Source of the DNA: Desulfarculaceae bacterium
Lineage (GTDB): Bacteria > Desulfobacterota > Desulfarculia > Desulfarculales > Desulfarculaceae
Direction of reading: 5' to 3'
Length of the DNA: 64,000 nucleotides
NCBI GenBank assembly: GCA_020444545.1
Contig: JAHLKT010000004.1
Coordinates: 558,001-622,000, forward strand
Shown here: positions 1,296 through 28,408 of the stretch, piece after piece
Position numbering within the stretch: the first letter of the stretch is position 1
Layout: each line of letters begins with the position of its first letter
Notes under the pieces: model-generated
Database searches by the model: none
What the model was told of the DNA's origin: nothing
The model's input: the letters and a program-made list of their open reading frames with translations, nothing else
Translations under genes and position numbers: made by a program

Positions 1296-1297
1296 CC

Positions 1298-2953: not shown

Positions 2954-3342
2954 TGAAGCTCTATAACGGACCGCAGATCATAGTTGGCCTGGTTATCTTC
3001 CTGGCCATCTTCACCTACCCGTTCTGGAGCGGCGCGGGCAAGGCGGCCCCGGTGCCCAAGCCCCAGCCGGTGCCCAAGAGCGTGGCCACCCAGTGCGTGG
3101 CGGACACCGCCTACATGCGCACCAGCCACATGACCCTGCTCAACCATTGGCGGGACGAGGTGGTGCGCGACGGCGACCGGCTCTACGAGTCGGCCAACGG
3201 CAAGACCTTCAACATGAGCCTGAGCAACACCTGCTTCCAGTGCCACACCAGCAAGGTCAAGTTCTGCGACCAGTGTCACAACTACCTGGCCGTGGCGCCG
3301 TTCTGTTGGGATTGCCACCTTGTGCCGAAGGAGAAGAAGTGA
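2953..3342 (+). CDS. dsrJ: DsrJ, periplasmic triheme cytochrome c
   Basis: 129 residues. An N-terminal hydrophobic segment (about 9-24) anchors the protein to the periplasmic side. Three CXXCH heme motifs are present at residues 94-98 (CFQCH), 105-109 (CDQCH) and 118-122 (CWDCH). Cys48, in the segment TQCVADTAYM, sits where DsrJ proteins carry the conserved Cys that is an unusual axial heme ligand; that assignment rests on known DsrJ biochemistry and was not tested here. The length is normal for the family. The gene overlaps the stop of dsrK and the start of dsrO. Confidence 0.95.
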   Translation: MKLYNGPQIIVGLVIFLAIFTYPFWSGAGKAAPVPKPQPVPKSVATQCVADTAYMRTSHMTLLNHWRDEVVRDGDRLYESANGKTFNMSLSNTCFQCHTSKVKFCDQCHNYLAVAPFCWDCHLVPKEKK

Positions 3343-4169
3343 TGGGCGTGGACAGGAGACAGTTTCTAAAACTCGCCGGGATCGCGGGCGCCCTTGGCCT
3401 GGGAGGCTCCGTGGGTTTCCAGCTGCTCAAGCCTGGTTCCCTGGACGCCGCCGAGCGTATGCCCACGCCTTATCAGATGGTCTTCCCCAAGAGCCAGGGC
3501 AACTCCGAGGTGATGCCCAACCCCAAGGCCCTGAAGGGCCGCCGCTGGGGCATGGTCATCGATATGCGCAAGCTCACCGAGGAAAAGGCCCGGGCGGCCA
3601 TTCAGGCCTGCAACTACTACCACAACGTGCCGGACATCCCGGGTAAGCAAACCATCAAGTGGATCTGGCTGACGGGCTACGTCAACGCCTTCCCCGAGGT
3701 GGAGAACCCCTTCGCGGATCCCGAGATCAAGAACGCCCGGTTCATCGCCATGTGCAACCACTGCGACAACCCGCCCTGCGTCCGGGTGTGCCCCACCAAG
3801 GCCACCTTCCAGCGCGAGGACGGCATCGTCATGATGGACATGCACCGCTGCATCGGCTGCCGGTTCTGCATGGCCGGTTGCCCCTACGGCTCGCGGAGCT
3901 TCAACTTCCGCGATCCTCGCCCCTTCATCAAGAAGGAGTACCCCCTCTACCCCACCCGCACCAAGGGCGTGGTCGAGAAGTGCACCTTCTGCTCCGAGCG
4001 CCTCGCGGTGGGCAAGCTGCCCTACTGCGCCGAGGCCAGCGGCGGGGCCATGGTCTTTGGCGATGTGGACGACGCGGGCAGCGAGCTTCGCAGGCTGCTG
4101 CGCTCGCGCTACAGCATTCGCCGTAAACCCAACCTGGGCACCCATCCCCAGGTCTACTACCTGGTATAG
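3342..4169 (+). CDS. dsrO: DsrO, periplasmic ferredoxin-like subunit
   Basis: 275 residues from the ATG at 3342, which overlaps the dsrJ stop (TGATG). The frame is open further upstream, but this start places a twin-arginine signal at the N-terminus (RRQFLKLAG, Arg5-Arg6, then a hydrophobic stretch), as expected for Tat export. Cysteine groups CNHCDNPPCVRVC (138-150), CIGCRFCMAGC (170-180), CTFC (214-217) and Cys229 make a multi-cluster electron-transfer protein that partners DsrP. The longer start would lie inside dsrJ and bury the Tat signal, so I reject it. Confidence 0.95.
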   Translation: MGVDRRQFLKLAGIAGALGLGGSVGFQLLKPGSLDAAERMPTPYQMVFPKSQGNSEVMPNPKALKGRRWGMVIDMRKLTEEKARAAIQACNYYHNVPDIPGKQTIKWIWLTGYVNAFPEVENPFADPEIKNARFIAMCNHCDNPPCVRVCPTKATFQREDGIVMMDMHRCIGCRFCMAGCPYGSRSFNFRDPRPFIKKEYPLYPTRTKGVVEKCTFCSERLAVGKLPYCAEASGGAMVFGDVDDAGSELRRLLRSRYSIRRKPNLGTHPQVYYLV

Positions 4170-4177
4170 AGGTCGTC

Positions 4178-5338
4178 ATGCTTGAAAAGGCGCTAAGCGG
4201 AAGCAAGCTGTACTGGACCTGGCTCATCTGCCTGCTCGTGGTTATCGGAGCCGGTTTCGGGGCCTATTTGGTTCAGTACAATAAAGGCCTCATGATCACC
4301 GGCATGAGCCGGGACGTTTCCTGGGGCTTCTACATCGCCCAGTTCACCTTCCTGGTGGGCGTTGCCGCCTCGGCGGTCATGCTGGTGCTGCCCTACTATC
4401 TGCACCACTACAAGACCTTCGGGCGCATCACCATCCTGGGCGAATTCCTGGCCATCGCGGCGGTGATCATGTGCATCCTGTTCATCACCGTCGACCTTGG
4501 TAAACCGAGCCGCATCCTGAACGTGATGCTGCACCCCACGCCCAACTCCATCCTGTTCTGGGACATGATCGTCCTGAACGGATACCTGATCATCAACCTG
4601 GTGGCCGGGTGGGTGACTCTGGAGGCCGAGCGCAAGCAGCTGGCTCCTCCGGGGTGGATCAAGCCCATCATCTACCTGTCCATCCCCTGGGCGGTGTCCA
4701 TCCACACCGTGACGGCCTTCCTGTACGCCGGTCTGCCCGGCCGCGGCTTCTGGCTCACCGCCATCATGGCCCCGCGCTTTTTGGCCTCGGCTTTCGCGGC
4801 CGGCCCCGCGGTGCTCATCCTGCTGGGCTACCTGGTCAAGAAGCTCACCCGCTTCGACGCGGGCCGCGAGGCCTTCGAGACCCTGGCCAAGATCGTTTGC
4901 TACGCCATCATCCTGCACATCTTCTTCTTCCTGCTGGAGGTGTTCACGGTGGCCTACAGCGCGATCCCCAGCCACACCTCGCACCTGAAGTACCTCTACT
5001 TCGGCCTGCACGGGCACAACAACCTGGTGCCCTGGGTTTGGACCGCTCTGGCCTGCGGCTTCACGGCCATCGTCCTCTTGGTCAACCCGCGCACCCGCAA
5101 GAACCCCACCATCCTGCCCTTCGCCTGCGTCCTGGTGTTCATCTGCACCTGGATCGACAAGGGCATGGCCATGATCTCCGGCGGGTTCGTGCCCAACCCC
5201 TTGCACGAGGTCACCGAGTACTCGCCCACCGGGCTCGAGCTGATGATCACCATCGGGGTGTACGCGGCCGGCGCCCTGGTGCTGACCATCCTGTACAAGG
5301 TGGCCCTGGGGGTCAAGGCGGAGGAAGAGGCCGTCTAA
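4178..5338 (+). CDS. dsrP: DsrP, NrfD-like quinone-interacting membrane subunit
   Basis: 386 residues, almost entirely hydrophobic, with about ten predicted membrane helices (first near 16-35, last near 355-378). It belongs to the NrfD/PsrC family and exchanges electrons between menaquinone and DsrO. A purine-rich ribosome site (GAGG) precedes the ATG. It is the last dsr gene and is followed by a strong intrinsic terminator at 5371-5403, so the operon ends here. No truncation or frameshift is seen. Confidence 0.94.
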   Translation: MLEKALSGSKLYWTWLICLLVVIGAGFGAYLVQYNKGLMITGMSRDVSWGFYIAQFTFLVGVAASAVMLVLPYYLHHYKTFGRITILGEFLAIAAVIMCILFITVDLGKPSRILNVMLHPTPNSILFWDMIVLNGYLIINLVAGWVTLEAERKQLAPPGWIKPIIYLSIPWAVSIHTVTAFLYAGLPGRGFWLTAIMAPRFLASAFAAGPAVLILLGYLVKKLTRFDAGREAFETLAKIVCYAIILHIFFFLLEVFTVAYSAIPSHTSHLKYLYFGLHGHNNLVPWVWTALACGFTAIVLLVNPRTRKNPTILPFACVLVFICTWIDKGMAMISGGFVPNPLHEVTEYSPTGLELMITIGVYAAGALVLTILYKVALGVKAEEEAV

Positions 5339-5476: not shown

Positions 5477-5791
5477 ATGGGAGATCAAGACAAGCCCCAA
5501 GGCCAGGGAGCCTGGCTCAACGTGTTCTGCCCCGAGGCGCGCTGCCTCACAGAGGCCGAGGTGGCCTCCCTGCCCCCGGAAATGCGTCAGGCGCCCGGCG
5601 TAAAAGACAAGGACGGCCTGTGGCTCAAGGTGTTCTGCCCGGACGACTCATGCCTGAGCGAGACGGAGAAGGGCTCGCCCGTGGCCCCGGTGCTCAGGGC
5701 CCAAAAAAATCCGGGCGAAAAGGGGTTGTGGCTCAACCTCTTTTGCCCGGATGACGCTTGCCTGGTGGAGGAGGACACCGACCTGCCCTAG
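5477..5791 (+). CDS. Small three-repeat FCPxxxCL protein, unknown function
   Basis: 104 residues, with a good ribosome site (GGAGGTGACCC before the ATG). The protein is three copies of a motif W-L-[NK]-[VL]-F-C-P-x3-C-L at residues 13-24, 49-60 and 85-96. The spacing is exactly 36 residues: W13/W49/W85, C18/C54/C90 and C23/C59/C95. The linkers are polar and differ from each other. No signal peptide or membrane segment is seen, so it is probably cytoplasmic. Paired cysteines four residues apart could bind a metal or form disulfides, but nothing proves either. I do not recognise the family. It is expressed separately from dsr, after that operon's terminator. Confidence 0.8.
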   Translation: MGDQDKPQGQGAWLNVFCPEARCLTEAEVASLPPEMRQAPGVKDKDGLWLKVFCPDDSCLSETEKGSPVAPVLRAQKNPGEKGLWLNLFCPDDACLVEEDTDLP

Positions 5792-6428: not shown

Positions 6429-6505
<77 letters not shown>

Positions 6506-6683: not shown

Positions 6684-7132
6684 CATATTGTTTCAGAGGC
6701 CAAGAAGATGCCTGAGCTCACCCCTCGAGAGCTGGCCTGGCACATCACCGACAGCCAGGGCGCCTTCATCAGCGAGTCCAGCGTCTATCGCATCTTGGGG
6801 GACGGGGCAAGCCCTACCACCCCATGACCCAGGGCAAGATCGAACGATACCGCCGGACCTTGAAGAACCGGATCAACCAGGAGAACTATTACCTGCCCTG
6901 GGACCTGGAGCATCAGATCGGCCGTTTCGTGGATTACTACAACCACCGGCGGGTGCACGAGTCCCTGGGCAACCTGCCCCCCGCCGATGTGTATCACGGC
7001 CGGGCCAGAGAAATGGTGACGGCCAGGAATCTGGTCAAGGAGCAAACCACGCGGCACAGGAGGCGCCACAACCTGGGGCTGAGGCCTCTAAACTCGGATC
7101 GTACGGCAACACGAGCATGGGGCTATTCGTGA
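6684..7132 (+). pseudogene. IS3-family transposase (OrfB/DDE) remnant
   Basis: Two pieces of one transposase lie in different frames. The first (about 6696-6827) reads PELTPRELAWHITD...SESSVYRIL, the helix-turn-helix part of IS3-type OrfB. The second (about 6812-7132) reads KPYHPMTQGKIERY...FVDYYNHRRVHESL, the end of the DDE domain with its third catalytic acid (Glu in GKIERY). The roughly 100 residues between them, which hold the two catalytic Asp, are missing and the frame is broken. No terminal inverted repeats are clear. The element is dead and marks the edge of the array region beside the tRNA gene. Confidence 0.85.
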
Positions 7133-7217: not shown

Positions 7218-7613
7218 CTATTTCTTACTGGCGTTGTCGCAATCGCAATCGCAGTAGGTGATGGTCTTGTTCTCCACGTGTGTGCCGTCGTGCTTGTAGA
7301 CCTTGACCTTGTCGGGGTAGATGCGGGCGTACCCACCCTTGGGGATGCTGAAGCCATCCTGGTTGCAGCGGCAGCATTTGTCGCCGTGTTTCACCAGGTA
7401 GACCGCGTAGACGTGGCTGAGGCTGTCGCCGTGCCCGCCGTTGTGCTTGCCGTGGGCCGGGATCATGAACTTGCAGTTATCGAGGAGAAATTGAGACCAA
7501 AAGGTTTGTATGCACACCTTGTGGTCAACGTGGTTGTAGATGGCATAGGCCTGGGCGGAGCCCGCCGCCAACAGGGCTGCGGCGCAAAGCATAACGATCA
7601 TCAGGATTTTCAT
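7218..7613 (-). CDS. Array protein 1, small secreted His/Cys-rich (V type)
   Basis: 131 residues. Signal peptide about 1-22 (MKILMIVMLCAAALLAAGSAQA), with the mature form beginning AYAIYNHVDHKVC. The centre has IPAHGKHNGGHGDSLSH, and the C-terminal core is IPKGGYARIYPDKVKVYKH. It has the most C-terminal cysteines of the array (CCRC in the middle and CDCDC near the end). It is the last gene of the array; its ATG overlaps the stop of the preceding copy by 4 bases (ATGA). An extracytoplasmic location is inferred from the signal peptide; function unknown. Confidence 0.85.
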   Translation of the reverse strand: MKILMIVMLCAAALLAAGSAQAYAIYNHVDHKVCIQTFWSQFLLDNCKFMIPAHGKHNGGHGDSLSHVYAVYLVKHGDKCCRCNQDGFSIPKGGYARIYPDKVKVYKHDGTHVENKTITYCDCDCDNASKK

Positions 7614-7984
7614 GGTTTTTGCTCCCTTGACTCTGTCTTTGAGTAATCCGGGGTTATGTCCACGGTCTTTATGTGCTTGTCGCTGTGAGTGTAGATTTTG
7701 ACCCTTTTGTTGTAGATGCGGGCATAACCGCCCTTGGGTATGCTGAACTTGCCGCTGTGGTATTCGTTACTTTTAGTTTCGTAGAAGGCATATACGTTGT
7801 TCAGGCCCGCACCGTGCTCGCCGTTGTGGGTGCTGTGCGGGTCGACGCTCACATAGCAGCTAATTTGGTACCACCTCTTTAGGCAGAAGTGATGGCTGGT
7901 GTGGTTGTAAATTGCATAGGCTTGGGCGGAGCTTGCCGTGAGCAACGCGGCCAGGCACAGCAACGCGATGACTAAGGATTTCAT
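7610..7984 (-). CDS. Array protein 2, small secreted His-rich (T type)
   Basis: 124 residues from the ATG at 7984, chosen because it begins the signal peptide MKSLVIALLCLAALL and follows a GAGAGAGGAAG ribosome site; the frame is open upstream but that part is not signal-like. The mature start AYAIYNHTSHHFC, the T-type centre DPHSTHNGEHGAGL and the core IPKGGYARIYNKRVKIY match the family. It has two mature-region cysteines, near the N-terminus of the mature chain. The tail is longer and more charged than in other T-type copies. Confidence 0.85.
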   Translation of the reverse strand: MKSLVIALLCLAALLTASSAQAYAIYNHTSHHFCLKRWYQISCYVSVDPHSTHNGEHGAGLNNVYAFYETKSNEYHSGKFSIPKGGYARIYNKRVKIYTHSDKHIKTVDITPDYSKTESREQKP

Positions 7985-8009
7985 GGACTTCCTCTCTCGG
8001 GATTTTTGG

Positions 8010-8357
8010 TTAACTGTCGCGCTGTATGGACACGGTCTTTTGGTGCTTGTCGTGGTGATCATAGACTTTCAGCTCTCGGTCGTAGACCCTGATGTAGCCA
8101 CCCTTGGGAATGCTGAACTCGTCACTCCGGTAGTCGTTCCCCTTGGCGCGGAAAGAAGCCCATACCCGCTTCAGCCCGGCCCCATGCTCGCCGTTTAGGG
8201 TGCTGTGCGGGCCGACCTTCATGTCGCAGCCACTCATGGAGTACCAGTGGGCTATGCAAACCTTGTAAGAGGTGTGGTTGTAGATGGCATAGGCCTGCGC
8301 GGAACCCGCCATCAGCAGTGCCCCGGCGATAAAAATCGCTATTAATAAAGTTTTCAT
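8010..8357 (-). CDS. Array protein 3, small secreted His-rich (T type)
   Basis: 115 residues. Signal peptide about 1-22, then AYAIYNHTSYKVC, GPHSTLNGEHGAGL and IPKGGYIRVYDRELKVYDH. The usual STHNG is STLNG here, so one centre His is lost, and ARIY is changed to IRVY. It lies 25 bases upstream of array gene 2 on the same strand. Confidence 0.85.
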   Translation of the reverse strand: MKTLLIAIFIAGALLMAGSAQAYAIYNHTSYKVCIAHWYSMSGCDMKVGPHSTLNGEHGAGLKRVWASFRAKGNDYRSDEFSIPKGGYIRVYDRELKVYDHHDKHQKTVSIQRDS

Positions 8358-8394
8358 GGCCTCTCCCGGCTAATGGTTGCGGACCGTGCCGGCC

Positions 8395-8781
8395 CTAGGG
8401 CTTCTTTTTGCCCCTGCCCGGCCCCCAACAGTCGCAGTCGTACACATCGTGCTCGGCCACGTGCTTACCGTTGTGCTTGTAGACCTTGACCACTTCGTTG
8501 TACACGCGGGCGTAGCCGCCGTCCGGTATGTCGAATACCGCGACGCACCGACAGGTGCCGGAGCTATGCCAGATCATGCCCTGGTTCTTCATGCCGGAGC
8601 CGTGGGAACCATTGTGCTTGCCGTGCGGGGGAATGGTGAACTTGCAGGCGGCGAAAAAGGCACTGGCCGCGCTGGCCACGCAGATCTCGTGATCCACGTG
8701 GTTGTAGATGGCATAGGCCTGGGCCGTGCCCGCCGTCAGCAGGACGGCCAGGCACGCCGCGACAATCAGTAGTCTGTTCAT
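8395..8781 (-). CDS. Array protein 4, small secreted His/Cys-rich (V type)
   Basis: 128 residues. Signal peptide MNRLLIVAACLAVLLTAGTAQA, mature start AYAIYNHVDHEIC, centre IPPHGKHNGSHGSGM, then C-R-C, the core IPDGGYARVYNEVVKVYKH and a C-terminal CDC followed by a basic GRGKKKP tail. The extra cysteines place it with the longer V-type copies. It is followed after 37 bases by array gene 3. Confidence 0.85.
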   Translation of the reverse strand: MNRLLIVAACLAVLLTAGTAQAYAIYNHVDHEICVASAASAFFAACKFTIPPHGKHNGSHGSGMKNQGMIWHSSGTCRCVAVFDIPDGGYARVYNEVVKVYKHNGKHVAEHDVYDCDCWGPGRGKKKP

Positions 8782-8820
8782 GGTGCTGCCCTCCTTGGCA
8801 ACTATGGGTGGCCGCTGGAC

Positions 8821-8920
8821 TTAATTTCTGGTGTAAGGAAACGGCCAGCCGCCTTTGCGGTCATACTTGGTGGTGCTTTTGCTTTTGACGCGCTCGCCGT
8901 CGTGTTTATAAACTTCCGCC
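8821..8920 (-). pseudogene. Decayed C-terminal fragment of an array gene
   Basis: Directly after the stop of array gene 5 the minus strand reads EVYKHDGERVKSKS and on to a TAA at 8821. This matches the C-terminal VKVYKHDGKHV block of the family, but no signal peptide, Cys pair or His centre precedes it. It looks like the scar of an unequal crossover that removed the front of one copy. Confidence 0.75.
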
Positions 8921-9289
8921 CTACCCTCCGCAGTGGTACTTTTCGACGCCTCTGGTCTCGATGTGCTTGCCGTCGTGTTTATAGACTTTCACCTTGTCCT
9001 CGTAAATGCGGGCGTAGCCGCCATGGGGTATGTCGAAGCTGTCCCGGTTACTATGGCATGTATCATGCGCATCCCAAAACACGTGTACATGGCTGAGGCT
9101 GTCGCCATGCCCGCCGTTATGCTTGTCGTGGGCCGGTATCGTGAATTTGCATCCCTTGAAAGTAAATGGGGTCCAACGAGTAGACACGCACACCTCGTGG
9201 CCCACGTGGTTGTAGATGGCATAGGCTTGCGCCAGGCCGGCGGGCAGCAGGAGTGAAATCGCCAACAAGGCGATGGCCAACTTTTTCAT
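8921..9289 (-). CDS. Array protein 5, small secreted His/Cys-rich (V type)
   Basis: 122 residues. Signal peptide MKKLAIALLAISLLLPAGLAQA, mature start AYAIYNHVGHEVC, centre IPAHDKHNGGHGDSLSH, Cys in DTCHSN, core IPHGGYARIYEDKVKVYKH and a short tail ending KYHCGG. Its stop codon abuts the decayed fragment at 8821-8920. Confidence 0.85.
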   Translation of the reverse strand: MKKLAIALLAISLLLPAGLAQAYAIYNHVGHEVCVSTRWTPFTFKGCKFTIPAHDKHNGGHGDSLSHVHVFWDAHDTCHSNRDSFDIPHGGYARIYEDKVKVYKHDGKHIETRGVEKYHCGG

Positions 9290-9374
9290 GGGTTTCCCTT
9301 CTCTGCTTTTGCGATGTGAGGCAAAGACCTAGTAGCCGGTGGCGGCCGGCGCGGCCCCCGCCCGGCAACCGTTG

Positions 9375-9758
9375 CTATAAAAGGTGGTAGTATGAGGGGC
9401 ATTCCGTGCGGTGGATCCCCTTGGATCGTAGATGCTTGTTGTGGTGGTTGTAGATTTTCACCTCATGCTTGTAGATCCTGATGAACCCCCCCTTGGGAAT
9501 GTCGAATCTGCCGCTTCCCATGCAAAGGCCGCCGCTGGTGTTCCAAAACACGGCGGCGTCCCGCAGGCCCGAGCCGTGCTCCCCGTTGTGGTGGTCGTGG
9601 CTGCCCACATAGAAATTGCAGCCCCCTGCCCCGATGGCGACACAGACCTCGTGGTCCACATGGTTGTAGATGGCGTAGGCATGGGCCGGCATTGCCGCGC
9701 CCAGGCAGATCAGCCCGGCTATCAAAAAGGCCACCCCAAAGACTGTCTTGCTTTTCAT
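9375..9758 (-). CDS. Array protein 6, small secreted His/Cys-rich (V type)
   Basis: 127 residues from the ATG at 9758. The frame could start at a TTG four codons earlier, but the GGAGAGGG ribosome site overlaps that TTG and is well placed for the ATG. Long signal peptide ending PAHA, then AYAIYNHVDHEVC. The centre is GSHDHHNGEHGSGL, with an extra His. The core is IPKGGFIRIYKHEVKIYNHH, where Tyr-Ala of GGYAR is replaced by Phe-Ile. The tail has one Cys and ends SYYHLL. Confidence 0.83.
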   Translation of the reverse strand: MKSKTVFGVAFLIAGLICLGAAMPAHAYAIYNHVDHEVCVAIGAGGCNFYVGSHDHHNGEHGSGLRDAAVFWNTSGGLCMGSGRFDIPKGGFIRIYKHEVKIYNHHNKHLRSKGIHRTECPSYYHLL

Positions 9759-9853
9759 ATCCCTCTCCAAGTCTCATCAGCCGCCCACCCCGGAGTTGGC
9801 GGCGATCAAAATCCGATTAATACGTGCAGCCATGGTCCACCCGTGCCGCCTGC

Positions 9854-10231
9854 CTAGTCTCTGACTATGGTGGTGGAGCACTCCTCGCGTAGCGCGCTGT
9901 CCTTGTGCTTACTCTTTACGGTGACTTTCTTGCCGTCCTGGTAAACCGTCACCCAGCCGTGGGCGCCCACCTTCACCACGCAGACCCCATCGCCGATCTC
10001 GCCCCGGTTAGCCGCGTCCATAACCCTGACCGCGACCACGCCGGGCTTGCCCGGCAGGCATTTGTGATAGGTGGGATGTATGGTCCAGTTGTTGGAGCAG
10101 CCGGGCCCGCAGTCGAAAACCACGTAAATGGGCGAATGGGCCCTGTTGTAAACGCACGCCGCCAGGCCCGCCCGGGGCCGGAGGCAGGCCGCCAGGACAA
10201 GAGCCAATATGGCGACAAGCAACTGTTTCAT
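9854..10231 (-). CDS. Array protein 7, highly divergent family member
   Basis: 125 residues from the ATG at 10231, chosen because it begins a signal peptide (MKQLLVAILALVLAACL) and avoids overlapping the decayed copy upstream. The mature start AACVYNRAHSPIYVVF parallels AYAIYNH. The segment VKVGAHGWVTVYQDGKKVTV lies where others have IPKGGYARIYPHEVKVY. The HNG-HG centre is absent and there are more cysteines (about six in the mature part). Cys in the signal region (AACLRPRAGLAAC) could alternatively be a weak lipobox. Homology to its neighbours is by pattern and position, less certain than for the others. Confidence 0.72.
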   Translation of the reverse strand: MKQLLVAILALVLAACLRPRAGLAACVYNRAHSPIYVVFDCGPGCSNNWTIHPTYHKCLPGKPGVVAVRVMDAANRGEIGDGVCVVKVGAHGWVTVYQDGKKVTVKSKHKDSALREECSTTIVRD

Positions 10232-10281
10232 GATCACCCTTGGTTTCGGCGCGCTCATAGCCGTGTCTGGAAACCTTCCCC

Positions 10282-10455
10282 CTACCATGTGCAGTCATAT
10301 TTGGTGATGCCTCTAGTTTCGACGTGATCGCCGTTGCGTTTATAGACCTTCACCTCGTCATCGTGGATGCGGGCGTAGCCGCCACGGGGGATGGTGAAGG
10401 GGGCCCGGTTGCCGCGGCATAATTGGTAACGCATTACGATCATCAGAGTTTTCAT
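10282..10455 (-). pseudogene. Internally deleted array copy (57-codon ORF)
   Basis: The frame runs from an ATG at 10455 to a TAG at 10282. It begins MKTLMIVM, identical to the signal start of array gene 9, then jumps directly into PFTIPRGGYARIHDDEVKVYKR. The rest of the signal peptide, both conserved cysteines and the His centre are gone, yet the frame is intact. Without a full signal peptide it is unlikely to be exported, so I call it a deletion derivative. Confidence 0.8.
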
Positions 10456-10477
10456 GGGTAATCTTCCCCGGCTCTGT

Positions 10478-10828
10478 TTAGTAGTTGTCCATTTCTATGG
10501 GCACGGTATTTTCGTGCTTGCCGTGGTGATTGTAGATCTTGATTTTTTTGTCGTAGATGCGAGCATAGCCGCTCTTGGGAATGCTGAACTCGTCGCTTTT
10601 ATAGAGGTTCCCCTTGGAGTGGTAGGAGGCCCACACGCTCTTCAAGCCCGCGCCGTGCTCGCCGTTATGGGTGCTGTGCGGGTCAACGCTTACATGGCAG
10701 TTGCCGGTGTCGTACCACTTGGTAATGCAGATGTTATGGCTGGTGTGGTTGTAGATGGCATAGGCCTGGGCGAAACCAGGAACTAATAAGGCCGCGGCGC
10801 AAAGCATAATGATCATCAGAGTTTTCAT
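10478..10828 (-). CDS. Array protein 8, small secreted His-rich (T type)
   Basis: 116 residues. Signal peptide MKTLMIIMLCAAALLVPGFAQA, mature start AYAIYNHTSHNIC, second Cys in DTGNCHV, centre DPHSTHNGEHGAGL, core IPKSGYARIYDKKIKIYNHH, C-terminus EMDNY. GGY is changed to SGY, as in array gene 10, its closest relative by eye although another copy lies between them. Confidence 0.86.
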   Translation of the reverse strand: MKTLMIIMLCAAALLVPGFAQAYAIYNHTSHNICITKWYDTGNCHVSVDPHSTHNGEHGAGLKSVWASYHSKGNLYKSDEFSIPKSGYARIYDKKIKIYNHHGKHENTVPIEMDNY

Positions 10829-10854
10829 GGGTTTTCCTTCACCGGCTGTGTTTA

Positions 10855-11205
10855 TTAGTCCTCTTTATCTATGCGCACGGTATTTTTGTGCTTGCCATGG
10901 TGAGTGTAGATTTTGATCTCTCTGTCGTAGATGCGGGCATAACCGCCCTTGGGTATGCTGAACTTGTCGCTTTCGTAATCGTGTTTCTTGGTTCCGTAGT
11001 AGGCGTAAACGCTGCTCAGGCCCGCGCCGTGCTCACCGTTGTGGGTGCTGTGCGGGTCAACGTACACGTGGCATTCGCCGGGGTAGTCGTACCACTTCTT
11101 TAGGCAGATGTAATAGTTGGTGTGGTTGTAGATGGCATAGGCTTGCGCGGAGCCCGCCGTCAGCAGGGCCGCGGCGCAGAGCATAACGATCATAAGAGTT
11201 TTCAT
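10855..11205 (-). CDS. Array protein 9, small secreted His-rich (T type)
   Basis: 116 residues. Signal peptide MKTLMIVMLCAAALLTAGSAQA, mature start AYAIYNHTNYYIC, second Cys in GECHV, centre DPHSTHNGEHGAGL, core IPKGGYARIYDREIKIYTHH, C-terminus DKED. It has two mature-region cysteines only. The leader is almost the same as in array genes 1 and 8. Confidence 0.86.
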   Translation of the reverse strand: MKTLMIVMLCAAALLTAGSAQAYAIYNHTNYYICLKKWYDYPGECHVYVDPHSTHNGEHGAGLSSVYAYYGTKKHDYESDKFSIPKGGYARIYDREIKIYTHHGKHKNTVRIDKED

Positions 11206-11226
11206 GGTTCTTGCTCCCCCGGGTTT

Positions 11227-11577
11227 TTAGTAGTTGTCCAACTCTATGGGCACGGTCTTTTTGTGCTTGTTGTGGTGATTGTAGATCTTGACCTCTTTGT
11301 CGTAGATGCGGGCATAACCGCTCTTGGGAATGCTGAACTCGTCGCTTTCATAGCGGTTTCCCTTGGAGTGATATTCGGCCCACACCCTGCTCAGGCCCGC
11401 GCCGTGCTCTCCGTTGTGGGTGCTGTGCGGGCCAACGCGCACATGGCAGTTGCCGGTGTCGTACCACTTGAGTATGCAGATGTGATGGCTGGTGTGGTTG
11501 TAGATGGCATAGGCTTGCGCCACGCCGGCAGGCAGCAGCAGCGCAATCGCCAACAGGGCTATAGATAACTTTTTCAT
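11227..11577 (-). CDS. Array protein 10, small secreted His-rich (T type)
   Basis: 116 residues from the ATG at 11577, which begins the signal peptide MKKLSIALLAIALLLPAGVAQA and follows a GGAGAGGAGA ribosome site; the open frame upstream reads out of phase through the next copy's tail. Mature start AYAIYNHTSHHIC, centre GPHSTHNGEHGAGL, core IPKSGYARIYDKEVKIYNHH, C-terminus ELDNY. The leader is of the MKKLSIALLA type shared with V-type neighbours, while the body is T type, so this copy looks like a recombinant. Confidence 0.87.
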   Translation of the reverse strand: MKKLSIALLAIALLLPAGVAQAYAIYNHTSHHICILKWYDTGNCHVRVGPHSTHNGEHGAGLSRVWAEYHSKGNRYESDEFSIPKSGYARIYDKEVKIYNHHNKHKKTVPIELDNY

Positions 11578-11650
11578 TGGTCTCTCCTCTCCGGACTGCG
11601 GCGCGGGGTGATAATTATTAGCTTTTGCAAGGTAGTTACCCTTGAAAAGT

Positions 11651-12055
11651 TTAGTTGTCCCCGCTGGAATTTTTCCTGTCCTCCGAGGGTCCGCAATATC
11701 CCCTGCCGATGCTTTTAGTATCCACATGCTTGCCGTCGTGCTTGTAGACCTTGACCTCATGGGGGTAGATGCGGGCGTAGCCACCCTTGGGTATGCTGAA
11801 TCTTTCACCGTTGCTCATGCACACAAAGCGGTGCGGATACCACATCACAAGAACATGACTGAGGCTGTCGCCATGCCCGCCGTTGTGCTTGCCGTGGGCC
11901 GGTATCGTGAATTTGCAGTCTTTAAAAGAAAAAGCGGACCCAAGAGTACCCACGCATACCTCGTAGTCCACGTGGTTGTAGATGGCATAGGCCTGGGCCA
12001 TGCCGGCGGGCAGCAGCAGGGCAATCGCCAACAGGGCGATGGATAACTTTTTCAT
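11651..12055 (-). CDS. Array protein 11, small secreted His/Cys-rich (V type)
   Basis: 134 residues from the ATG at 12055 (signal peptide MKKLSIALLAIALLLPAGMAQA, ribosome site GAGGAAG). Mature start AYAIYNHVDYEVC, centre IPAHGKHNGGHGDSLSH, Cys in FVCMSNG, core IPKGGYARIYPHEVKVYKH, then GYCGPSEDRKNSS. The three earlier mature-region cysteines plus the tail Cys are typical of the V type. Confidence 0.87.
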   Translation of the reverse strand: MKKLSIALLAIALLLPAGMAQAYAIYNHVDYEVCVGTLGSAFSFKDCKFTIPAHGKHNGGHGDSLSHVLVMWYPHRFVCMSNGERFSIPKGGYARIYPHEVKVYKHDGKHVDTKSIGRGYCGPSEDRKNSSGDN

Positions 12056-12103
12056 CAGCTTCCTCTCTCTGGTGGTCAAGCATGTAACCCGTTTCCGGGT
12101 CGC

Positions 12104-12496
12104 CTACTTTTGCTTGGCTCCATAGGGACCGGCGTTGGGGCATGCGCAGTCGTGGGGGGTCTTGTGGTGGAAGCGATCGCCGTTGTGCTTGTAGATCTTT
12201 ACTTTGCCTTCGTAGATGCGGGCGTAGCCGCCATCGGGAATGTCAAAGTAGCCATCGGTGCCCCGGCAAGCCTCTCCATGCGCCCACACCACCCTCATCT
12301 TGTGCAGCCCGGCCCCGTGCTCGCCGTTCAACTTGCCGTTGGCAGGGATCTGGTTACGGCAACCGCCTAATTCCATCGCGCTGCGGTCCTGCAGGCACAC
12401 CACTTTGCCCACGTGGTTGTAGATGGCCCAGGCCCTAGCCATGCCGGCGGGCAGCAGGAGTGCGATCGCCAACAGGGCAATGGATAACTTTTTCAT
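12104..12496 (-). CDS. Array protein 12, small secreted His/Cys-rich (V type)
   Basis: 130 residues from the ATG at 12496 (signal peptide MKKLSIALLAIALLLPAGMARA). Mature start AWAIYNHVGKVVC, with Tyr changed to Trp. The centre IPANGKLNGEHGAGL has lost two of the usual His. The core is IPDGGYARIYEGKVKIYKH and the tail HDCACPNAGPYG adds two Cys. The 5' flank is homologous to that of array gene 10. Confidence 0.86.
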   Translation of the reverse strand: MKKLSIALLAIALLLPAGMARAWAIYNHVGKVVCLQDRSAMELGGCRNQIPANGKLNGEHGAGLHKMRVVWAHGEACRGTDGYFDIPDGGYARIYEGKVKIYKHNGDRFHHKTPHDCACPNAGPYGAKQK

Positions 12497-12605
12497 TGGT
12501 CTCTCCTCTCCGGATTGCGGCGTGGCGCTAGTAGTCTTTTCAGGGCATTTGCCCTTTGAAAGTTTGGTTGTCGCCGCTGGAATTTTTATTCGCAATTCGC
12601 CTTTT

Positions 12606-13016
12606 TTAGTTTTCTGGTTTCCGCACGGCGCCCGTTGCGTATTTCTCCTTTCTTATGCTTCTGGTTTCCACAATGTCGCCGTTGTGCTTATAAACCTTCA
12701 CCTCGCCATCATAGATACGGGCGTAGCCGCCATGGGGAATGGTGAAGCTGTCCGGGTTGTGCTTCCAATGGTCATGGCCCAGGTCCCAACTCACGGTTAC
12801 ATGGCTGAGGTTATCGCCATGCCCGCCGTTGTGCGTGCTATGAGGCGGGATCGTGAACTTGCAATCCGGCATCACATATTCACTCCAATAGGTTTGCACG
12901 CACACATGGTGGCCCACGTGGTTGTAGATGGCATAGGCCTGGGCCACGCCCGCCGCGCCCAAGCAAATCAACAGGGCCAGGGCAAGAATTAATAGCTTGC
13001 TGGAAACGATCTTCAT
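12606..13016 (-). CDS. Array protein 13, small secreted His/Cys-rich (V type), first gene
   Basis: 136 residues from the ATG at 13016; a longer frame exists but would begin upstream of the likely promoter at 13048-13076. Long signal peptide ending GVAQA, then AYAIYNHVGHHVC, centre IPPHSTHNGGHGDNLSH, core IPHGGYARIYDGEVKVYKH and a basic tail without Cys. The centre mixes the T-type STHNG with the V-type GHGDNLSH. It is the first gene of the presumed polycistron. Confidence 0.86.
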   Translation of the reverse strand: MKIVSSKLLILALALLICLGAAGVAQAYAIYNHVGHHVCVQTYWSEYVMPDCKFTIPPHSTHNGGHGDNLSHVTVSWDLGHDHWKHNPDSFTIPHGGYARIYDGEVKVYKHNGDIVETRSIRKEKYATGAVRKPEN

Positions 13017-13047
13017 GATTCTCTCCACGTTGCGGGGGCAGGCTCGG

Positions 13048-13076
13048 TTTAAAGCAATTTGCCGATTGATTGTCAG
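13048..13076 (-). promoter_or_regulatory. Candidate promoter of the secreted-protein array
   Basis: On the minus strand CTGACA (13071-13076) is separated by 17 bases from TTTAAA (13048-13053), about 32 bases before the first array ATG. Each hexamer has one or two mismatches to the sigma-70 consensus. Confidence 0.5.
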
Positions 13077-13078
13077 TC

Positions 13079-13102
13079 TCACTTTCCCGTGTCTCAAAGT
13101 GA
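13079..13102. promoter_or_regulatory. Inverted repeat upstream of the array promoter
   Basis: TCACTTT (13079-13085) and AAAGTGA (13096-13102) form a perfect 7-bp inverted repeat with a 10-base spacer, starting 3 bases upstream of the candidate -35. The position fits an activator or repressor site. The protein that binds is unknown. Confidence 0.45.
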
Positions 13103-13185
13103 TCTACGGTTATCTATTGCCATTGACGCCAAGGAAATCAATGGACCGCGGGCGGGCATCCGGCGAACGGACGCAATAATCAGGC

Positions 13186-13209
13186 GGGCGGCGCCAAGAG
13201 GCGTCGCCC
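13186..13209 (-). terminator. Possible hairpin after the response regulator gene
   Basis: A 10-bp stem with one mismatch (13186-13195 with 13200-13209, loop AAGA) lies about 43 bases after the stop of the minus-strand response regulator. There is no T-run, so an intrinsic terminator role is uncertain. Confidence 0.4.
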
Positions 13210-13251
13210 GGGCAAGCTAAGGATGGATTTTCGCGGAAAGCCGAAGTGCGA

Positions 13252-13992
13252 TCAGTCCGCCAAGGAAGAGAGACGTTTGCGAATCTGGGGGGTGAGACGG
13301 CGGCTGGCGACGCAAGATTCGGCCACGCCTCTCAGGCACAGCTTGAGCCGGTTGCCCGGAAGGGATTCAAAGGCCTCGACCTGTTCTAGGTTCACGATCA
13401 TCCCCCGGTGGATGCGCACGAACTGATCAGGGGGAAGCAACTCCTCCCATTGACGCAGGCTGCGCCAAACCGTGCCGGAGCCGCCGTCCGCGGACCGCAA
13501 TAAGGTGAAATCGCCGTTCGCTTCGATGAGACACACATGCTTCAGGTCCAGCCAACGGCGCTGCTTGCCGTCCTGGACCAGGATTACGTCGTCCTCGTGC
13601 AACCCTTCCGAGGAAGCTGACGGCGCCCGCTGCCCCTGCCTCTCGCCGAGCCGGCGGATGCTTTCGGCCAAACGGTCCTTGGTGACCGGCTTGAGCAGAT
13701 AGTCCAGTGCGTTGACCTCAAAAGCCCGGATAGCGTATTCGTTGAAAGCGGTGACGAAAACCACTGCTGTCTCATTGTCCAGCTTGGGCACCAGTTCGAA
13801 GCCGCTTTCACCGCACAATTCAATGTCCAGGAAGACCACCCCGGCCCGGGTTTCTTTGATCAATCGCTCCGCCTGGTCCACCGAATCGGCCTCGCCGCAA
13901 AGCTCGATCTCGGGGAAATCCGCCAGCATGCGCTTTAGAGCCTGCCTGGCCATGGGCTCGTCATCCACTATGATCACGCGCAGATCAGGCAT
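13252..13992 (-). CDS. LytTR-family response regulator
   Basis: 246 residues. The receiver domain (about 4-118) has the acidic pair Asp10-Asp11, phospho-acceptor Asp56 (FLDIEL), Thr81 and Lys101 (KPV). A LytTR DNA-binding domain follows (about 140-240: VCLIEANGDFTLL, FVRIHRGMIVNLEQV). The start overlaps the end of the kinase gene by 8 bases, so the two form one operon. Such regulators bind pairs of direct repeats and control secreted or surface functions. The target is not proved, but the secreted-protein array lies directly downstream on the same strand. Confidence 0.93.
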   Translation of the reverse strand: MPDLRVIIVDDEPMARQALKRMLADFPEIELCGEADSVDQAERLIKETRAGVVFLDIELCGESGFELVPKLDNETAVVFVTAFNEYAIRAFEVNALDYLLKPVTKDRLAESIRRLGERQGQRAPSASSEGLHEDDVILVQDGKQRRWLDLKHVCLIEANGDFTLLRSADGGSGTVWRSLRQWEELLPPDQFVRIHRGMIVNLEQVEAFESLPGNRLKLCLRGVAESCVASRRLTPQIRKRLSSLAD

Positions 13993-16090
13993 TTGGGTTT
14001 TCCGGCCGCGCGGGGAAAACGATACGGGCGATCACCCAGCCGTCTTCTTCCCTGATGTCAAAAGCGGCGTCCGAGCCATAGTGATGGGCCAGGCAGCGCT
14101 GCACGTATTCCAAACCCAATTGGGTGCCGGGCCCATGCCCGGCTTGGTCGGGCTCGAACCAGTGGCCGGTGTTGGCCACGATGAACAGGCATTTGTCACC
14201 CTCAAGGTGCGCGCTGATTTGAATCTTCAATGGCCTGGCGCCGGATCGCCGGCCGTATTTGACCGCGTTTTCCACGATCGGCTGGCCCAGGAAAACCGGT
14301 ATGAAAACCTGCTCGGCAGCCGCATCTACCCGTATGGCCGTCTCCATTTGATCCCCAAACCGGATTTCCTGTATTTGGAGATAATTTGCAATACGGTCGA
14401 ACTCATCAGAGACCGTGGTCAATAGTTCGGAACGATGGGTAAGGCTGGAGTGGTAGAAACCCGCCAGGGCCTCGATCATTTCCACCCCGCCGTCGGGGTC
14501 GGTCAGGACCATTTCCCGTATGGAGTTTAAGGTGTTGAATAAAAAATGGGGGTTCACTTGATAGCGAAGCATCTCGAGCTTGGTCCGGAGTAATAGATCT
14601 TCCGCCTCGCGGGTGCGCCTCGCCTTTGCCTCCGCTTCCCTGAGTTCGGTTACGTCTTCCACGCTGCCGTGAATAACGTTTATCCCCCCCTGGTCATCCA
14701 GTTCCGCGCGGGCGTGCAGGAGCGCCTGTAGCCGGGCTCCGTCCATGCGGACCATTTCGCATTCAAAGCCGCTCACCTCGCCTTCGCTGCGGAGCCGGTC
14801 CAGCAATTGCCCCCGCATGTCTCGCTCAACATAAAAATCAAGCGAGCTTCTTCCGACCAGATCGTCGGCGTTGGCGGCACGCAACATCTCCGCCAGCCTG
14901 GGGTTGGCCGCCAGCATGATGCCATCCCTGTTGGTCTGAAATATGCCCTCCACCGAGTTCTCAAATATGCCGCGGTATTTGCGCTCGGCCTCCGCTATAT
15001 CGTGAAAGTTCTCTTCCAGCCGAACGGCCATCTCGTTTAGGTCCCGGGCCAAGTCGCCCACCTCGTCACGCGGGCCCGGCGGCAAGCGCCTCTCCAGGCG
15101 GCCCCGGCATATATCCCCGGAGAACTCGCGGCAACGTTCTATTCTCTTGACCACCGGGGCGGTGAGTAGAAATACGGACACAATCAGCAGAGCGATGGTG
15201 AGGGCCACCACAATCAGCGTGATCTTACCCAGGAACCTAACCGGTGCGAGGATGATGGCCATGGGCTGCGAGACCACGATCGACCATCGGGGAGCCCTCA
15301 GTTGGGCGAAAGCGACAAGGTGTTCCCCTTCGGAGTCGCGGTAGCGAAAGATGCTTTCGCTCCTCTTTTCAAAGGCTGCCCGCAGTTCCTTGGGAGGAGG
15401 CGAATAATTCATCCAATTGGCCGGGGCTCGAATCTTGAGGGACTTGGGCGAGCTCGAGGGCAGAGAGGGGTCGAGAAAATATACCTTTTCTTTTGGCGCA
15501 ACGGTGTGAAGCGCCAGCACTTCCTGGCCGAAGCGGCCCAAATCCACGCCGGCCCGCAGGATCGCCACCACCTTTCCCAAGTGACGGACCGGGGCGGTCA
15601 GCGTAACCACGGGACGGTCGTCGGCCACGCCCACCACGGTGCGGCCTATGTTGGCGGTCCCGGCATAACCCGCCACCGCGCTGGGCCGCTTGCTGACGAC
15701 CTTGGGGCAGTGGGGGTGGAACAAGCGGCGAGGGTCGTCGCTGGCAATGCACTCACCTTTTTTATCGATCAGATATATGCTGGAATACGGCTCCCGAGTC
15801 ACCACGGCGGAGAAGTATTTGTCAAATGCGGCCCGCGTCTTGGGGTCCTTGTAATGCAGGACGGTATTGCTGACCAAGGGCATGGCGGCCCAATATTCGA
15901 ACTTGCGCAGCTCGGTGTCGAACCGGAGCTGAATTGCTTCCGCCAAAAGAACCGCGGTGCCCGCCAGCCGCTGCTTGGCCCTTTGTTCCAATCTTTCGGA
16001 TGCGAACAAATACACCAGGGACGAGGATGTCAGCGCCACGGCGATGACGATAGAGGTGAGTAGCAATATTAATTTGGTTCTGAGGCTCAT
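13985..16090 (-). CDS. LytS/YehU-type sensor histidine kinase with periplasmic sensor and PAS
   Basis: 701 residues. In order: membrane helix (about 7-28), a large extracytoplasmic double-Cache-like sensor (about 30-275), a second helix (about 285-310), HAMP (about 312-365), a PAS domain (about 370-490) and a His_kinase domain with YQVNPHFLFNTL (His near 513). The C-terminal ATP-binding part has lost some canonical G boxes but keeps LGLEYVQRCLAHHYG, normal for this subfamily. It pairs with the LytTR regulator. The ligand is unknown; Cache domains usually bind small organic molecules. Confidence 0.92.
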   Translation of the reverse strand: MSLRTKLILLLTSIVIAVALTSSSLVYLFASERLEQRAKQRLAGTAVLLAEAIQLRFDTELRKFEYWAAMPLVSNTVLHYKDPKTRAAFDKYFSAVVTREPYSSIYLIDKKGECIASDDPRRLFHPHCPKVVSKRPSAVAGYAGTANIGRTVVGVADDRPVVTLTAPVRHLGKVVAILRAGVDLGRFGQEVLALHTVAPKEKVYFLDPSLPSSSPKSLKIRAPANWMNYSPPPKELRAAFEKRSESIFRYRDSEGEHLVAFAQLRAPRWSIVVSQPMAIILAPVRFLGKITLIVVALTIALLIVSVFLLTAPVVKRIERCREFSGDICRGRLERRLPPGPRDEVGDLARDLNEMAVRLEENFHDIAEAERKYRGIFENSVEGIFQTNRDGIMLAANPRLAEMLRAANADDLVGRSSLDFYVERDMRGQLLDRLRSEGEVSGFECEMVRMDGARLQALLHARAELDDQGGINVIHGSVEDVTELREAEAKARRTREAEDLLLRTKLEMLRYQVNPHFLFNTLNSIREMVLTDPDGGVEMIEALAGFYHSSLTHRSELLTTVSDEFDRIANYLQIQEIRFGDQMETAIRVDAAAEQVFIPVFLGQPIVENAVKYGRRSGARPLKIQISAHLEGDKCLFIVANTGHWFEPDQAGHGPGTQLGLEYVQRCLAHHYGSDAAFDIREEDGWVIARIVFPARPENPNA

Positions 16091-16626
16091 CTACCCCCCG
16101 ATCGACATGCTCTTTTGGATAACGCGAGTCGGGGGGGCGTGGCGAGCATGTAAAGCAGTCGTGGCGAGCATGTAAAGCAATGCTTGCTAAACTAACTTGC
16201 TTTTCATGGGCGGGTCAATATGCAGTCCTCCTATTTCAGATATGAGAACGACATCCTTACCCACGGCAGCTCCCATATTACAAAACAGAGCGCCTTTGCC
16301 TCCGGTTTTTCGCAGGTGCTTTCCGGCGGGCATCATATCGTTCAAAAACGACTGGCGGCGGCCGGAGACACCGGGAAATTGATAGGTTGCTCTACGCCGC
16401 TCCACCAAATCATCAAGTGGCATTCCTGCCATAAATCAAACCTGCTCGTTGGAAGTAGATTGCGGAAGGAGGTCAGATTGACTTAGCACTTGGCGATAGT
16501 CCACCATCTAACTAGACAAAGACTCCTCACCCTGATCCTTCCCCCCCGCACGCCGAGTCTGCCCCACGCGAGCGGGCCCCGGCCCGCCTACAATGCCGCA
16601 CACTCTTGTCACGAAAGGAGTGTCTC
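16091..16626. other. Intergenic region between sensor kinase and glycyl radical gene
   Basis: About 530 bases separate two divergent genes. Short frames exist on both strands (16187-16432 minus, 16220-16486 plus), but none has a ribosome site, family motif or codon pattern I trust. The only structured element is the 20-base tandem repeat at 16138-16179. No confident promoter for the glycyl radical gene could be picked. Confidence 0.6.
16138..16179. repeat. 20-bp direct repeat pair, period 22, upstream of the kinase gene
   Basis: CGTGGCGAGCATGTAAAGCA occurs at 16138-16157 and again at 16160-16179, identical in both copies with a 2-base spacer. It lies about 48-90 bases upstream of the kinase start. 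LytTR regulators bind direct repeats about two helical turns apart, so it may be an autoregulatory site; that is inference. Confidence 0.75.
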
Positions 16627-21456: not shown

Positions 21457-22014
21457 ATGGCGGAACCCGAGAGCACTCAGTCCTTCCCAGAGGCGGCTTC
21501 ATCCGCCGCCTCCGTCCCATCGGACGCGCGCCAAAGCTTCGTCAGCTTTCGCCTGGACCAAAAGCTGTTCGCCCTTCCCCTGGACCGGGTGGAGCGGGCC
21601 TTGCGCATGGTGGCGCCGGTGCGCCTTCCCGAGGCCCCGCCTTGGATCGCCGGGGTGATCAACCTGCACGGCCAGGCGCTGCCCGTCCTGGACCTGGGCC
21701 AGATATTCGGCCGCCTCCCTCGCCAGCCCCATCCTGACCAGCGGCTCCTGGTGGTCGCCCAGCGGCCCCGCAGGGTGGCCTTGCAGGTGGACGCGGTGGA
21801 GAGCGTGGTCAAGGCCTCGCCCGGAGAGATCGTGCCGCCCACGGGCCATTTGGCCGAGTCGCGGGTGCTGGCGGGCATTTTCGAGCACGGCGAGGAACTG
21901 GTCCTGCTGTTGGACCCGGAGCGCTTGGCTCCCGCCGATTGGCGGGACCGGGAAGACTTGTGGGCAGAGCTGGAAGAGCAGGGCGCTCGTCTGATGCCGG
22001 CGGCCGATGAGTAG
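21457..22014 (+). CDS. cheW: CheW-like coupling protein (WspB-like)
   Basis: 185 residues from the ATG at 21457; a GTG two codons earlier is possible but sits against the AGGTAG ribosome site. After a Ser/Ala-rich leader it has the CheW fold: FVSFRLDQKLFALPLDRVERAL, WIAGVINLHGQALPVLDLG and VALQVDAVESVV. It couples receptors to the CheA kinase in the cytoplasm. The gene overlaps the next one by 8 bases. Together with a CheR-TPR and a second CheW it reproduces the wspBCD set. Confidence 0.88.
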   Translation: MAEPESTQSFPEAASSAASVPSDARQSFVSFRLDQKLFALPLDRVERALRMVAPVRLPEAPPWIAGVINLHGQALPVLDLGQIFGRLPRQPHPDQRLLVVAQRPRRVALQVDAVESVVKASPGEIVPPTGHLAESRVLAGIFEHGEELVLLLDPERLAPADWRDREDLWAELEEQGARLMPAADE

Positions 22015-23491: not shown

Positions 23492-23515
23492 GCCGGATAA
23501 GGAGACGAGCCACCC

Positions 23516-24073: not shown

Positions 24074-24113
24074 GCACTCGCCCGGAGCACACGCCAAGAG
24101 TTGGAGAAAAGCC

Positions 24114-26513: not shown

Positions 26514-26563
26514 GAATAATAATTTCGGCGCATCAAGGCACACGCAGTAAGGGATTTCATCTC

Positions 26564-28363: not shown

Positions 28364-28408
28364 GGCTATGGGCGCCAAGCTTCATAAGCTCCGGACAGGA
28401 GAAGCGGC

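What the first reader, a model, noticed from the sequence alone, without database searches (positions are those of the whole stretch)
7218..13016. Tandem array of about 15 secreted His/Cys-rich paralogues of unknown family
Thirteen intact copies and two broken ones of one small secreted protein stand in one strand run. The fold skeleton (AYAIYNH, Cys pair, HNG-HG centre, GGYARIY, VKVY-H) is constant, while loops, Cys number and tails vary. This pattern suits a diversifying set: surface or extracellular metal binders, toxins or antagonism factors, adhesins or matrix parts. I recognise no family. The basis is direct for the array; the roles are inference.
Basis: partly seen in the sequence, partly recalled or inferred. 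Interest (0 to 1): 0.85.

Follow-up and report, generated by a model that had tools for sequence, protein, structure and literature searches.

The report
Array of disulfide-stapled secreted binding-type proteins
A sulfate-reducer-type bacterium carries a row of about fifteen related genes for small exported proteins of a family absent from the public libraries searched; they share one rigid, disulfide-braced core but have fast-changing loops, sit beside their probable sensor-regulator pair in an accessory stretch of the genome, and their function is not yet known.

Summary
In detail: 13 intact copies (12 of one type, one divergent) plus an internally deleted copy and a C-terminal fragment lie on the minus strand at 7218-13016. 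They are exported (AxA signal peptides). No Pfam, NCBIfam, PHROGs, PADLOC or PDB sequence family matches. Close relatives are confined to one genus of Desulfarculaceae-like bacteria (0-7 per genome, mostly single genes). AlphaFold2 gives a confident small beta-sandwich (pLDDT 95) for both the main and the divergent type; the best solved fold for both is PUD-1, with weak scores. A loop cysteine and a tail cysteine are always present or absent together (19/0/0/10 sequences, 4 concerted changes on a tree), which implies a disulfide. Core omega is 0.2-0.3, loops/tail about 0.7. Signal peptides and mature domains have been exchanged between copies. New here: the array lies directly behind a dCache histidine kinase and a LytTR response regulator. 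The same order, beside the same tRNA-Arg, occurs in another genus, and that tRNA is an insertion hotspot. Best reading: an accessory, probably LytTR-controlled set of exported binding proteins with variable loops on one scaffold. What they bind (protein, glycan or metal) is not shown.

The parts
13985..16090 (-). Histidine kinase, 701 aa: dCache_1 sensor, HAMP, PAS, His_kinase (LytS type)
   Evidence: Pfam scan; 68% identical orthologue in another genus of the family (G011), not found in 7 congeners
13252..13992 (-). Response regulator with LytTR DNA-binding domain, 246 aa, overlaps the kinase gene
   Evidence: Pfam scan; 77% identical in G011
13017..13251 (-). 235-bp gap between regulator and first copy; probable promoter region; TCCGTTCGC (8 of 9 to the LytTR half-site consensus) at 13163-13171 also occurs behind the regulator in G011 (weak lead)
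12606..13016 (-). copy c1, intact, 136 aa (V class, loop and tail Cys both absent)
12104..12496 (-). copy c2, intact, 130 aa; sister of a single gene in congener G007 (66% identity)
11651..12055 (-). copy c3, intact, 134 aa (V class)
11227..11577 (-). copy c4, intact, 116 aa (T class; signal peptide of the c2/c3/c10 type, mature part of the c5/c6 type)
   Evidence: AF2 model of this copy
10855..11205 (-). copy c5, intact, 116 aa (T class)
10478..10828 (-). copy c6, intact, 116 aa (T class)
10282..10455 (-). copy c7, internally deleted, 57 aa
9854..10231 (-). copy c8, intact divergent 'C-type' paralogue, 125 aa; its orthologue is the one behind the regulator in G011 (50% identity)
   Evidence: AF2 model
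9375..9758 (-). copy c9, intact, 127 aa
8921..9289 (-). copy c10, intact, 122 aa (V class)
8822..8920 (-). C-terminal fragment of a lost copy (EVYKHDGERVKSKSTTKYD...)
8395..8781 (-). copy c11, intact, 128 aa (2 loop Cys, 2 tail Cys)
8010..8357 (-). copy c12, intact, 115 aa (T class)
7610..7984 (-). copy c13, intact, 124 aa (T class)
7218..7613 (-). copy c14, intact, 131 aa (V class; 3 loop Cys, 3 tail Cys); 4-bp overlap with c13
6824..7132 (+). remnant of an IS3-type transposase (rve_3), left border of the variable stretch
   Evidence: Pfam scan
6429..6505 (+). tRNA-Arg (CCG), insertion hotspot beside the array
   Evidence: ARAGORN and Rfam; same tRNA followed by an integrase in G004, an IS110-type transposase in G006, and the kinase-regulator-secreted module in G011

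Best explanation
This is an accessory, probably LytTR-controlled operon of exported binding proteins. Each gene makes a protein of about 95-115 residues that leaves the cytoplasm by a cleavable Sec-type signal peptide and folds into a small beta-sandwich. One disulfide (Cys12-Cys22 of the mature chain) braces the N-terminal part, and in most V-type copies a second ties the C-terminal tail to a hairpin loop. The scaffold is kept by purifying selection while loops and tail change fast. New combinations arise by tandem duplication, multi-gene segment duplication and exchange between copies, also at the signal-peptide/mature border. A membrane kinase with an extracytoplasmic dCache sensor and its LytTR regulator, encoded just upstream, probably switch the row on. 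The set would then act outside the inner membrane as a mixed panel of variants, each holding a different loop face to an external partner. I think the likeliest partner is a variable macromolecule (protein or glycan of neighbours, phage or surface), with the panel working by binding or neutralising it. Shown: the array, the pairing of cysteines, mosaicism, selection pattern, linkage and hotspot. Predicted: the fold and export. Inferred: regulation by the kinase/regulator, co-expression, binding role and target.
For: Array and signal peptides. AF2 pLDDT 95.4 for a main copy and 95.0 for the divergent type, from separate alignments, with similar strand order. Loop Cys and tail Cys co-occur perfectly, 19/0/0/10, Fisher p 5e-8, with 4 changes of each on the tree; Cys12/Cys22 are lost together in two relatives. 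Core omega 0.27 (T) and 0.21 (V) against loops/tail 0.68 in both. c4 and c3 share 89% DNA identity in the signal peptide but 52% in the mature N-half; c4 and c6 share 45% and 90%. Kinase + LytTR regulator directly upstream on the same strand; the same order kinase-regulator-C-type secreted gene in another genus at 68%/77%/50% identity, beside the same tRNA-Arg. Insertion hotspot: integrase, IS3 and IS110 elements follow this tRNA in congeners. GC 56% against 64% for the window. LytTR regulators are known to control secreted factors elsewhere, e.g. PlnC/PlnD (PMC2714321).
Against: No partner, target or activity is known. Omega never exceeds 1 over a whole domain, so positive selection is not shown, and fast loops also fit relaxed constraint. 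The kinase and regulator are missing from congeners that keep single members, so the proteins can work without them. No clear LytTR double site was found. The tree-aware test of the Cys pairing has too few independent pairs to be significant (3 of 3 agree, p 0.25), although the concerted changes are without exception. No att repeat of the tRNA end was found, so 'mobile island' is not proven.
Confidence: 0.4

Rival explanations
1. The copies are periplasmic or extracellular metal binders: conserved histidines (mature positions 6, 29, 32, 36, 79) make one site for zinc, copper, nickel or iron, and copy number gives dosage or a range of affinities.
For: H6, H36 and H79 are present in 12 of 12 array copies, H29 in 11 and H32 in 10; H36 and H79 go together over 29 relatives (20/1/1/7, p 4e-5). 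7 to 13 His per mature chain.
Against: Related sequences in the same genus keep the fold but lose the His. The H36/H79 link rests on only 2 changes on the tree, not independent evidence. No metal gene nearby. Coordinates of the model were not available, so clustering of the His was not tested.
Confidence: 0.25
2. The copies are secreted antagonism factors (bacteriocin-like proteins) released as a mixture under kinase control.
For: Secreted, disulfide-braced, diversified and accessory; LytTR regulators control bacteriocins elsewhere (PMC2714321, PMC8545106). c1 gives a weak end-to-end match to the secreted antibacterial JUQZ-1/BLB8 family (13.8 bits).
Against: The JUQZ match is far under the 40-bit cut-off, vanishes when the signal peptide is left out, and the same profile scores better on an unrelated place in this genome and gives sub-cut-off matches in 11 of 14 control genomes. 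No immunity partner genes alternate with the copies.
Confidence: 0.15
3. The copies are structural parts of a surface layer or matrix, or adhesins.
For: Exported, many copies, variable loops; small beta-sandwich.
Against: No sorting, anchor or repeat domain; chains of about 95-115 residues; single dispersed genes in congeners have no shared surface-gene neighbourhood.
Confidence: 0.1
4. Selfish or neutral gene amplification in an accessory region, now decaying, without function for most copies.
For: One internal deletion, one fragment, transposase remnant, low GC.
Against: 13 of 15 copies are intact over deep divergence (median dS about 1.1) with core omega 0.2-0.3.
Confidence: 0.07

Closest known systems
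PUD-1/PUD-2 (C. elegans, PDB 4jde), and folds near it (cytolysin domain 4, transthyretin-like, aegerolysin)
   Same: Small two-sheet beta-sandwich; PUD-1 is the top solved match for both independently predicted models (VIA-align Z 6.7, rmsd 3.6, 87 aligned; and Z 7.6, rmsd 2.8, 86 aligned). PUD-1/2 also come as small paralogue families (PMC3683130).
   Different: Z under 8 can mean only a common arrangement; no sequence match; identity 9-14%; no disulfide-tail anatomy recorded here for PUD.
LytTR-controlled secreted factor operons (e.g. PlnC/PlnD bacteriocin regulon)
   Same: LytTR regulator with its kinase next to genes for small secreted proteins (PMC2714321).
   Different: Here the sensor is dCache/HAMP/PAS; no inducer peptide, transporter or immunity genes; control not shown.
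JUQZ-1/BLB8 secreted antibacterial protein family (NF053514)
   Same: Secreted protein of about 12 kDa (PMC11747845).
   Different: 13.8 bits against a cut-off of 40, driven by the signal peptide.
Orphan immunity gene arrays on accessory islands (acquired interbacterial defence clusters; from memory)
   Same: Row of diversified small genes in an accessory stretch near a tRNA/integrase hotspot.
   Different: Those mix unrelated immunity families and lie beside recombinases; here one family, no cognate toxin known, only a transposase remnant.

Membership tests
Any family of Pfam-A, NCBIfam, PHROGs or PADLOC | profile score over the curated cut-off (or a significant E-value where the library has none) | tested here: not met
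   Best hits are partial and far under cut-off
PUD / aegerolysin-like beta-sandwich | same fold | tested here: inconclusive
   Top match of both models but Z 6.7 and 7.6, Foldseek E 0.034 and 0.0094
PUD / aegerolysin-like beta-sandwich | sequence profile match (Pfam Aegerolysin; PDB chain 4jde) | tested here: not met
   No such hit at E up to 10
JUQZ-1/BLB8 (NF053514) | 40-bit cut-off | tested here: not met
   13.8 bits at best; no match from mature chains
LytTR two-component target operon | kinase + LytTR regulator adjacent and co-oriented | tested here: met
   conserved in a second genus
LytTR two-component target operon | pair of LytTR half-sites in the promoter | tested here: inconclusive
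   One 8-of-9 half-site shared by both loci, no second at the usual spacing
LytTR two-component target operon | transcription depends on the regulator | not testable with these tools
   needs RNA data
Exported disulfide protein | cleavable signal peptide in every intact copy | tested here: met
   Positively charged start, hydrophobic stretch and AxA before the mature chain in the 12 main copies, read from the alignment; no signal-peptide predictor was run
Exported disulfide protein | paired gain or loss of cysteines | tested here: met
   19/0/0/10, 4 concerted changes
Orphan immunity array | homologous to a known immunity protein or beside a cognate toxin | tested here: not met
   PADLOC, Pfam and NCBIfam empty; no toxin gene among the neighbours scanned
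Metal-binding protein | spatial cluster of ligands | not testable with these tools
   model coordinates not available; conservation only

The most novel reading that the evidence does not exclude
A sulfate-reducing lineage has its own repertoire system: a sensor-kinase-switched panel of scaffolded exported binders, re-shuffled between signal-peptide, scaffold and disulfide-pinned tail modules at a tRNA hotspot, used to recognise or neutralise changing external partners such as toxins, phages or competitors.
Probability: 0.2. Interest if true: 0.75.

Novelty: new variant of a known kind. Interest (0 to 1): 0.47.

Why it matters
It adds an undescribed exported protein family with a confidently predicted fold, a clear disulfide logic and a natural set of 13 intact variants, tied to a sensor that can be tested. 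If the variants bind different partners, it would be a compact bacterial system for studying how a fixed scaffold with exchangeable loops is diversified, in a group (Desulfarculaceae-like sulfate reducers) where extracellular interactions are little studied. If they bind metal, it would explain a gene amplification in an organism that probably lives in sulfide-rich, metal-poor conditions.

Tried and rejected
Phage, plasmid and viral origin: no relatives in phage or plasmid records or in viral contigs. RNA element: only the tRNA found. JUQZ bacteriocin membership: rejected. Partial hits to IDH, KdpA, PraB, Anophelin, PhrC/PhrF and others: short, single-member, under cut-off. Viral structure library: no match at E 0.001 or better. 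Kinase relative in G379 (31%) has no such secreted gene beside it. att duplication of the tRNA end: none found. Whole-domain positive selection: omega under 1. His covariation as proof of a site: not independent on the tree. Promoter and terminator scan: no clear excess over shuffles. A profile-profile comparison of main and divergent types aligns only the last 30 columns (prob 65); their kinship rests on the HMM match (E 2e-21) and the similar strand order of the models.
Full report
OBSERVATION. The array is real and lies where stated. On the minus strand of 7218-13016 there are 12 intact main-type copies, one intact divergent copy (9854-10231), one copy with its middle deleted (10282-10455) and a C-terminal fragment at about 8822-8920. 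A profile of the set recovers the main copies at E 4e-45 to 2e-55 in the window's own genome, the divergent copy at 2e-21 and the deleted one at 6e-13. Gaps are short (21-139 bp, one 4-bp overlap), most starts are preceded by a purine-rich stretch, and no excess of promoter- or terminator-like sites is seen. An operon is therefore likely but not shown.

FAMILY. Pfam, NCBIfam, PHROGs and PADLOC give only partial matches well under any cut-off, and the PDB sequences give nothing. The same genome holds four more members as single genes on other contigs. The seven held congeners have 0-7 members each. The main type was found in no other genus among 395 genomes of the phylum, nor, by a pattern-based scan, outside these relatives in the 84,980-species collection. 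That scan reaches only close relatives. The divergent 'C-type' reaches another genus of the family (G011) and, weakly, another family of the phylum (G243).

FOLD. With 29 aligned relatives, AlphaFold2 models copy c4 at mean pLDDT 95.4 as an all-beta chain. The C-type, modelled from its own 8 sequences, gives pLDDT 95.0 and a similar strand order. For both, PUD-1 (4jde) is the first solved match (Z 6.7 with rmsd 3.6 over 87 residues; Z 7.6 with rmsd 2.8 over 86), followed by PepT extracellular domains, cytolysin domain 4 and transthyretins. Scores of this size can reflect only a common sandwich arrangement, so I file the proteins under no fold family.

DISULFIDES. Across 29 sequences, Cys in the loop at mature positions 48-58 and Cys in the C-terminal tail are present together in 19 and absent together in 10, never one alone (p 5e-8). 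In two copies even the numbers match at more than one (c14 3+3, c11 2+2); in c2 and three relatives a single loop Cys meets two tail Cys. On a tree built without those columns both traits change four times. Cys12 and Cys22 are lost together in two relatives. Together with the signal peptides this is good evidence that the proteins fold outside the cytoplasm with a second disulfide that staples the tail. The tree-aware sign test is too small to be significant (3 of 3 pairs agree), and I mark this limit.

EVOLUTION. Core omega is 0.27 (T class) and 0.21 (V class), against 0.68 for loops and tail in both classes; the whole-domain median is 0.43. So the scaffold is kept and the exposed parts change fast, but positive selection is not demonstrated. 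Copies are mosaics: c4 has the signal peptide of c3 (89% DNA identity) on the mature domain of c6 (90%), while the other halves are only 52% and 45% alike. A 784-bp stretch spanning copies c5-c6 matches the c12-c13 stretch (70%), so blocks of more than one gene have been duplicated. The tree puts c2 next to a single gene of congener G007 and the T class near one of G009. The array therefore holds several old lineages, not one recent burst.

SURROUNDINGS. Directly upstream, co-oriented and overlapping each other, are a 701-aa histidine kinase (dCache, HAMP, PAS, His_kinase) and a LytTR response regulator. Among 20 genomes of the family the kinase is found only here and in G011, where kinase (68%), regulator (77%) and a C-type secreted protein (50% to copy c8) follow in the same order, with two more small apparently secreted proteins behind. 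In both genera this unit ends at the same tRNA-Arg (CCG), which faces it in the same orientation, although in G011 the sulfite-reductase-complex (Dsr-type) genes that lie near the tRNA here are on another contig. In congeners this tRNA is followed by a phage-type integrase and IS3 (G004), an IS110-type transposase (G006) or other genes (G008), and the pyruvate-formate-lyase-like gene on the far side of the kinase lies in other contexts in G008 and G009. With a transposase remnant at 6824-7132 and a GC of 56% against 64%, the simplest account is an accessory stretch at a tRNA hotspot. No att repeat was found, so mobility is inferred.

HOW IT MAY WORK. Shown: sequence anatomy, cysteine pairing, mosaicism, selection pattern, linkage, hotspot. 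Predicted: beta-sandwich and export. Inferred: the kinase and LytTR regulator switch on the array in response to an external small molecule, and the exported panel binds external partners through its variable loops. A metal-binding role stays open: His 6, 36 and 79 are in all 12 array copies, but dispersed relatives lose them and the link has few independent changes. Antagonism and structural roles are less likely for the reasons in the rival list.

COMPARISON. By regulation it works like LytTR-controlled operons of secreted factors such as the plantaricin regulon (PMC2714321); by its array form and insertion near a hotspot it recalls orphan immunity arrays (from memory, a lead only). It is a member of neither by the tests available. 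The end-to-end but weak match of c1 to the JUQZ-1 family was followed up and rejected.

VERDICT. The array is an undescribed, lineage-restricted family of exported, disulfide-stapled beta-sandwich proteins in a sensor-linked accessory operon. The kind of thing (diversified tandem array of secreted paralogues) is known; the family, the staple logic and the kinase linkage appear new. Function is open and directly testable.

Noticed in passing
window 6429-6505 and L110, L111, L114, L080: tRNA-Arg (CCG) is an insertion hotspot in this genus: what follows it differs between species (integrase + IS3, IS110-type transposase, GntR gene region, or the kinase-regulator-secreted module).
   Followed up: partly
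window 5477-5791 (+): Small cytoplasmic-looking protein behind a DsrMKJOP-like gene set (201-5338), made of three repeats of the form GLWLxVFCPDxxCL; G004 has a version with two repeats (L110:12725-12970). No Pfam match.
   Followed up: partly
L080:4412-4864 and 4919-5284: In G011 two further small apparently secreted proteins without Pfam match follow the C-type gene behind the same regulator; possibly further targets of it.
   Followed up: partly
window 9854-10231 (-): The divergent copy has LAAC at residue 16 and again at the mature start, a possible lipoprotein signal not shared by its relatives.
   Followed up: no
L077:3392-4176 (G009): Two different members of the family lie side by side in another species, a minimal array.
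   Followed up: no
window 16606-19614 (+): Large glycyl-radical enzyme (pyruvate formate-lyase-like) whose neighbours upstream differ in each congener, i.e. the right border of the variable stretch.
   Followed up: partly
window 22007-35652 (+): Chemotaxis-type cluster (CheR-TPR, two MCPs, CheA-like kinase, CheB, GGDEF response regulator, hybrid kinase).
   Followed up: no
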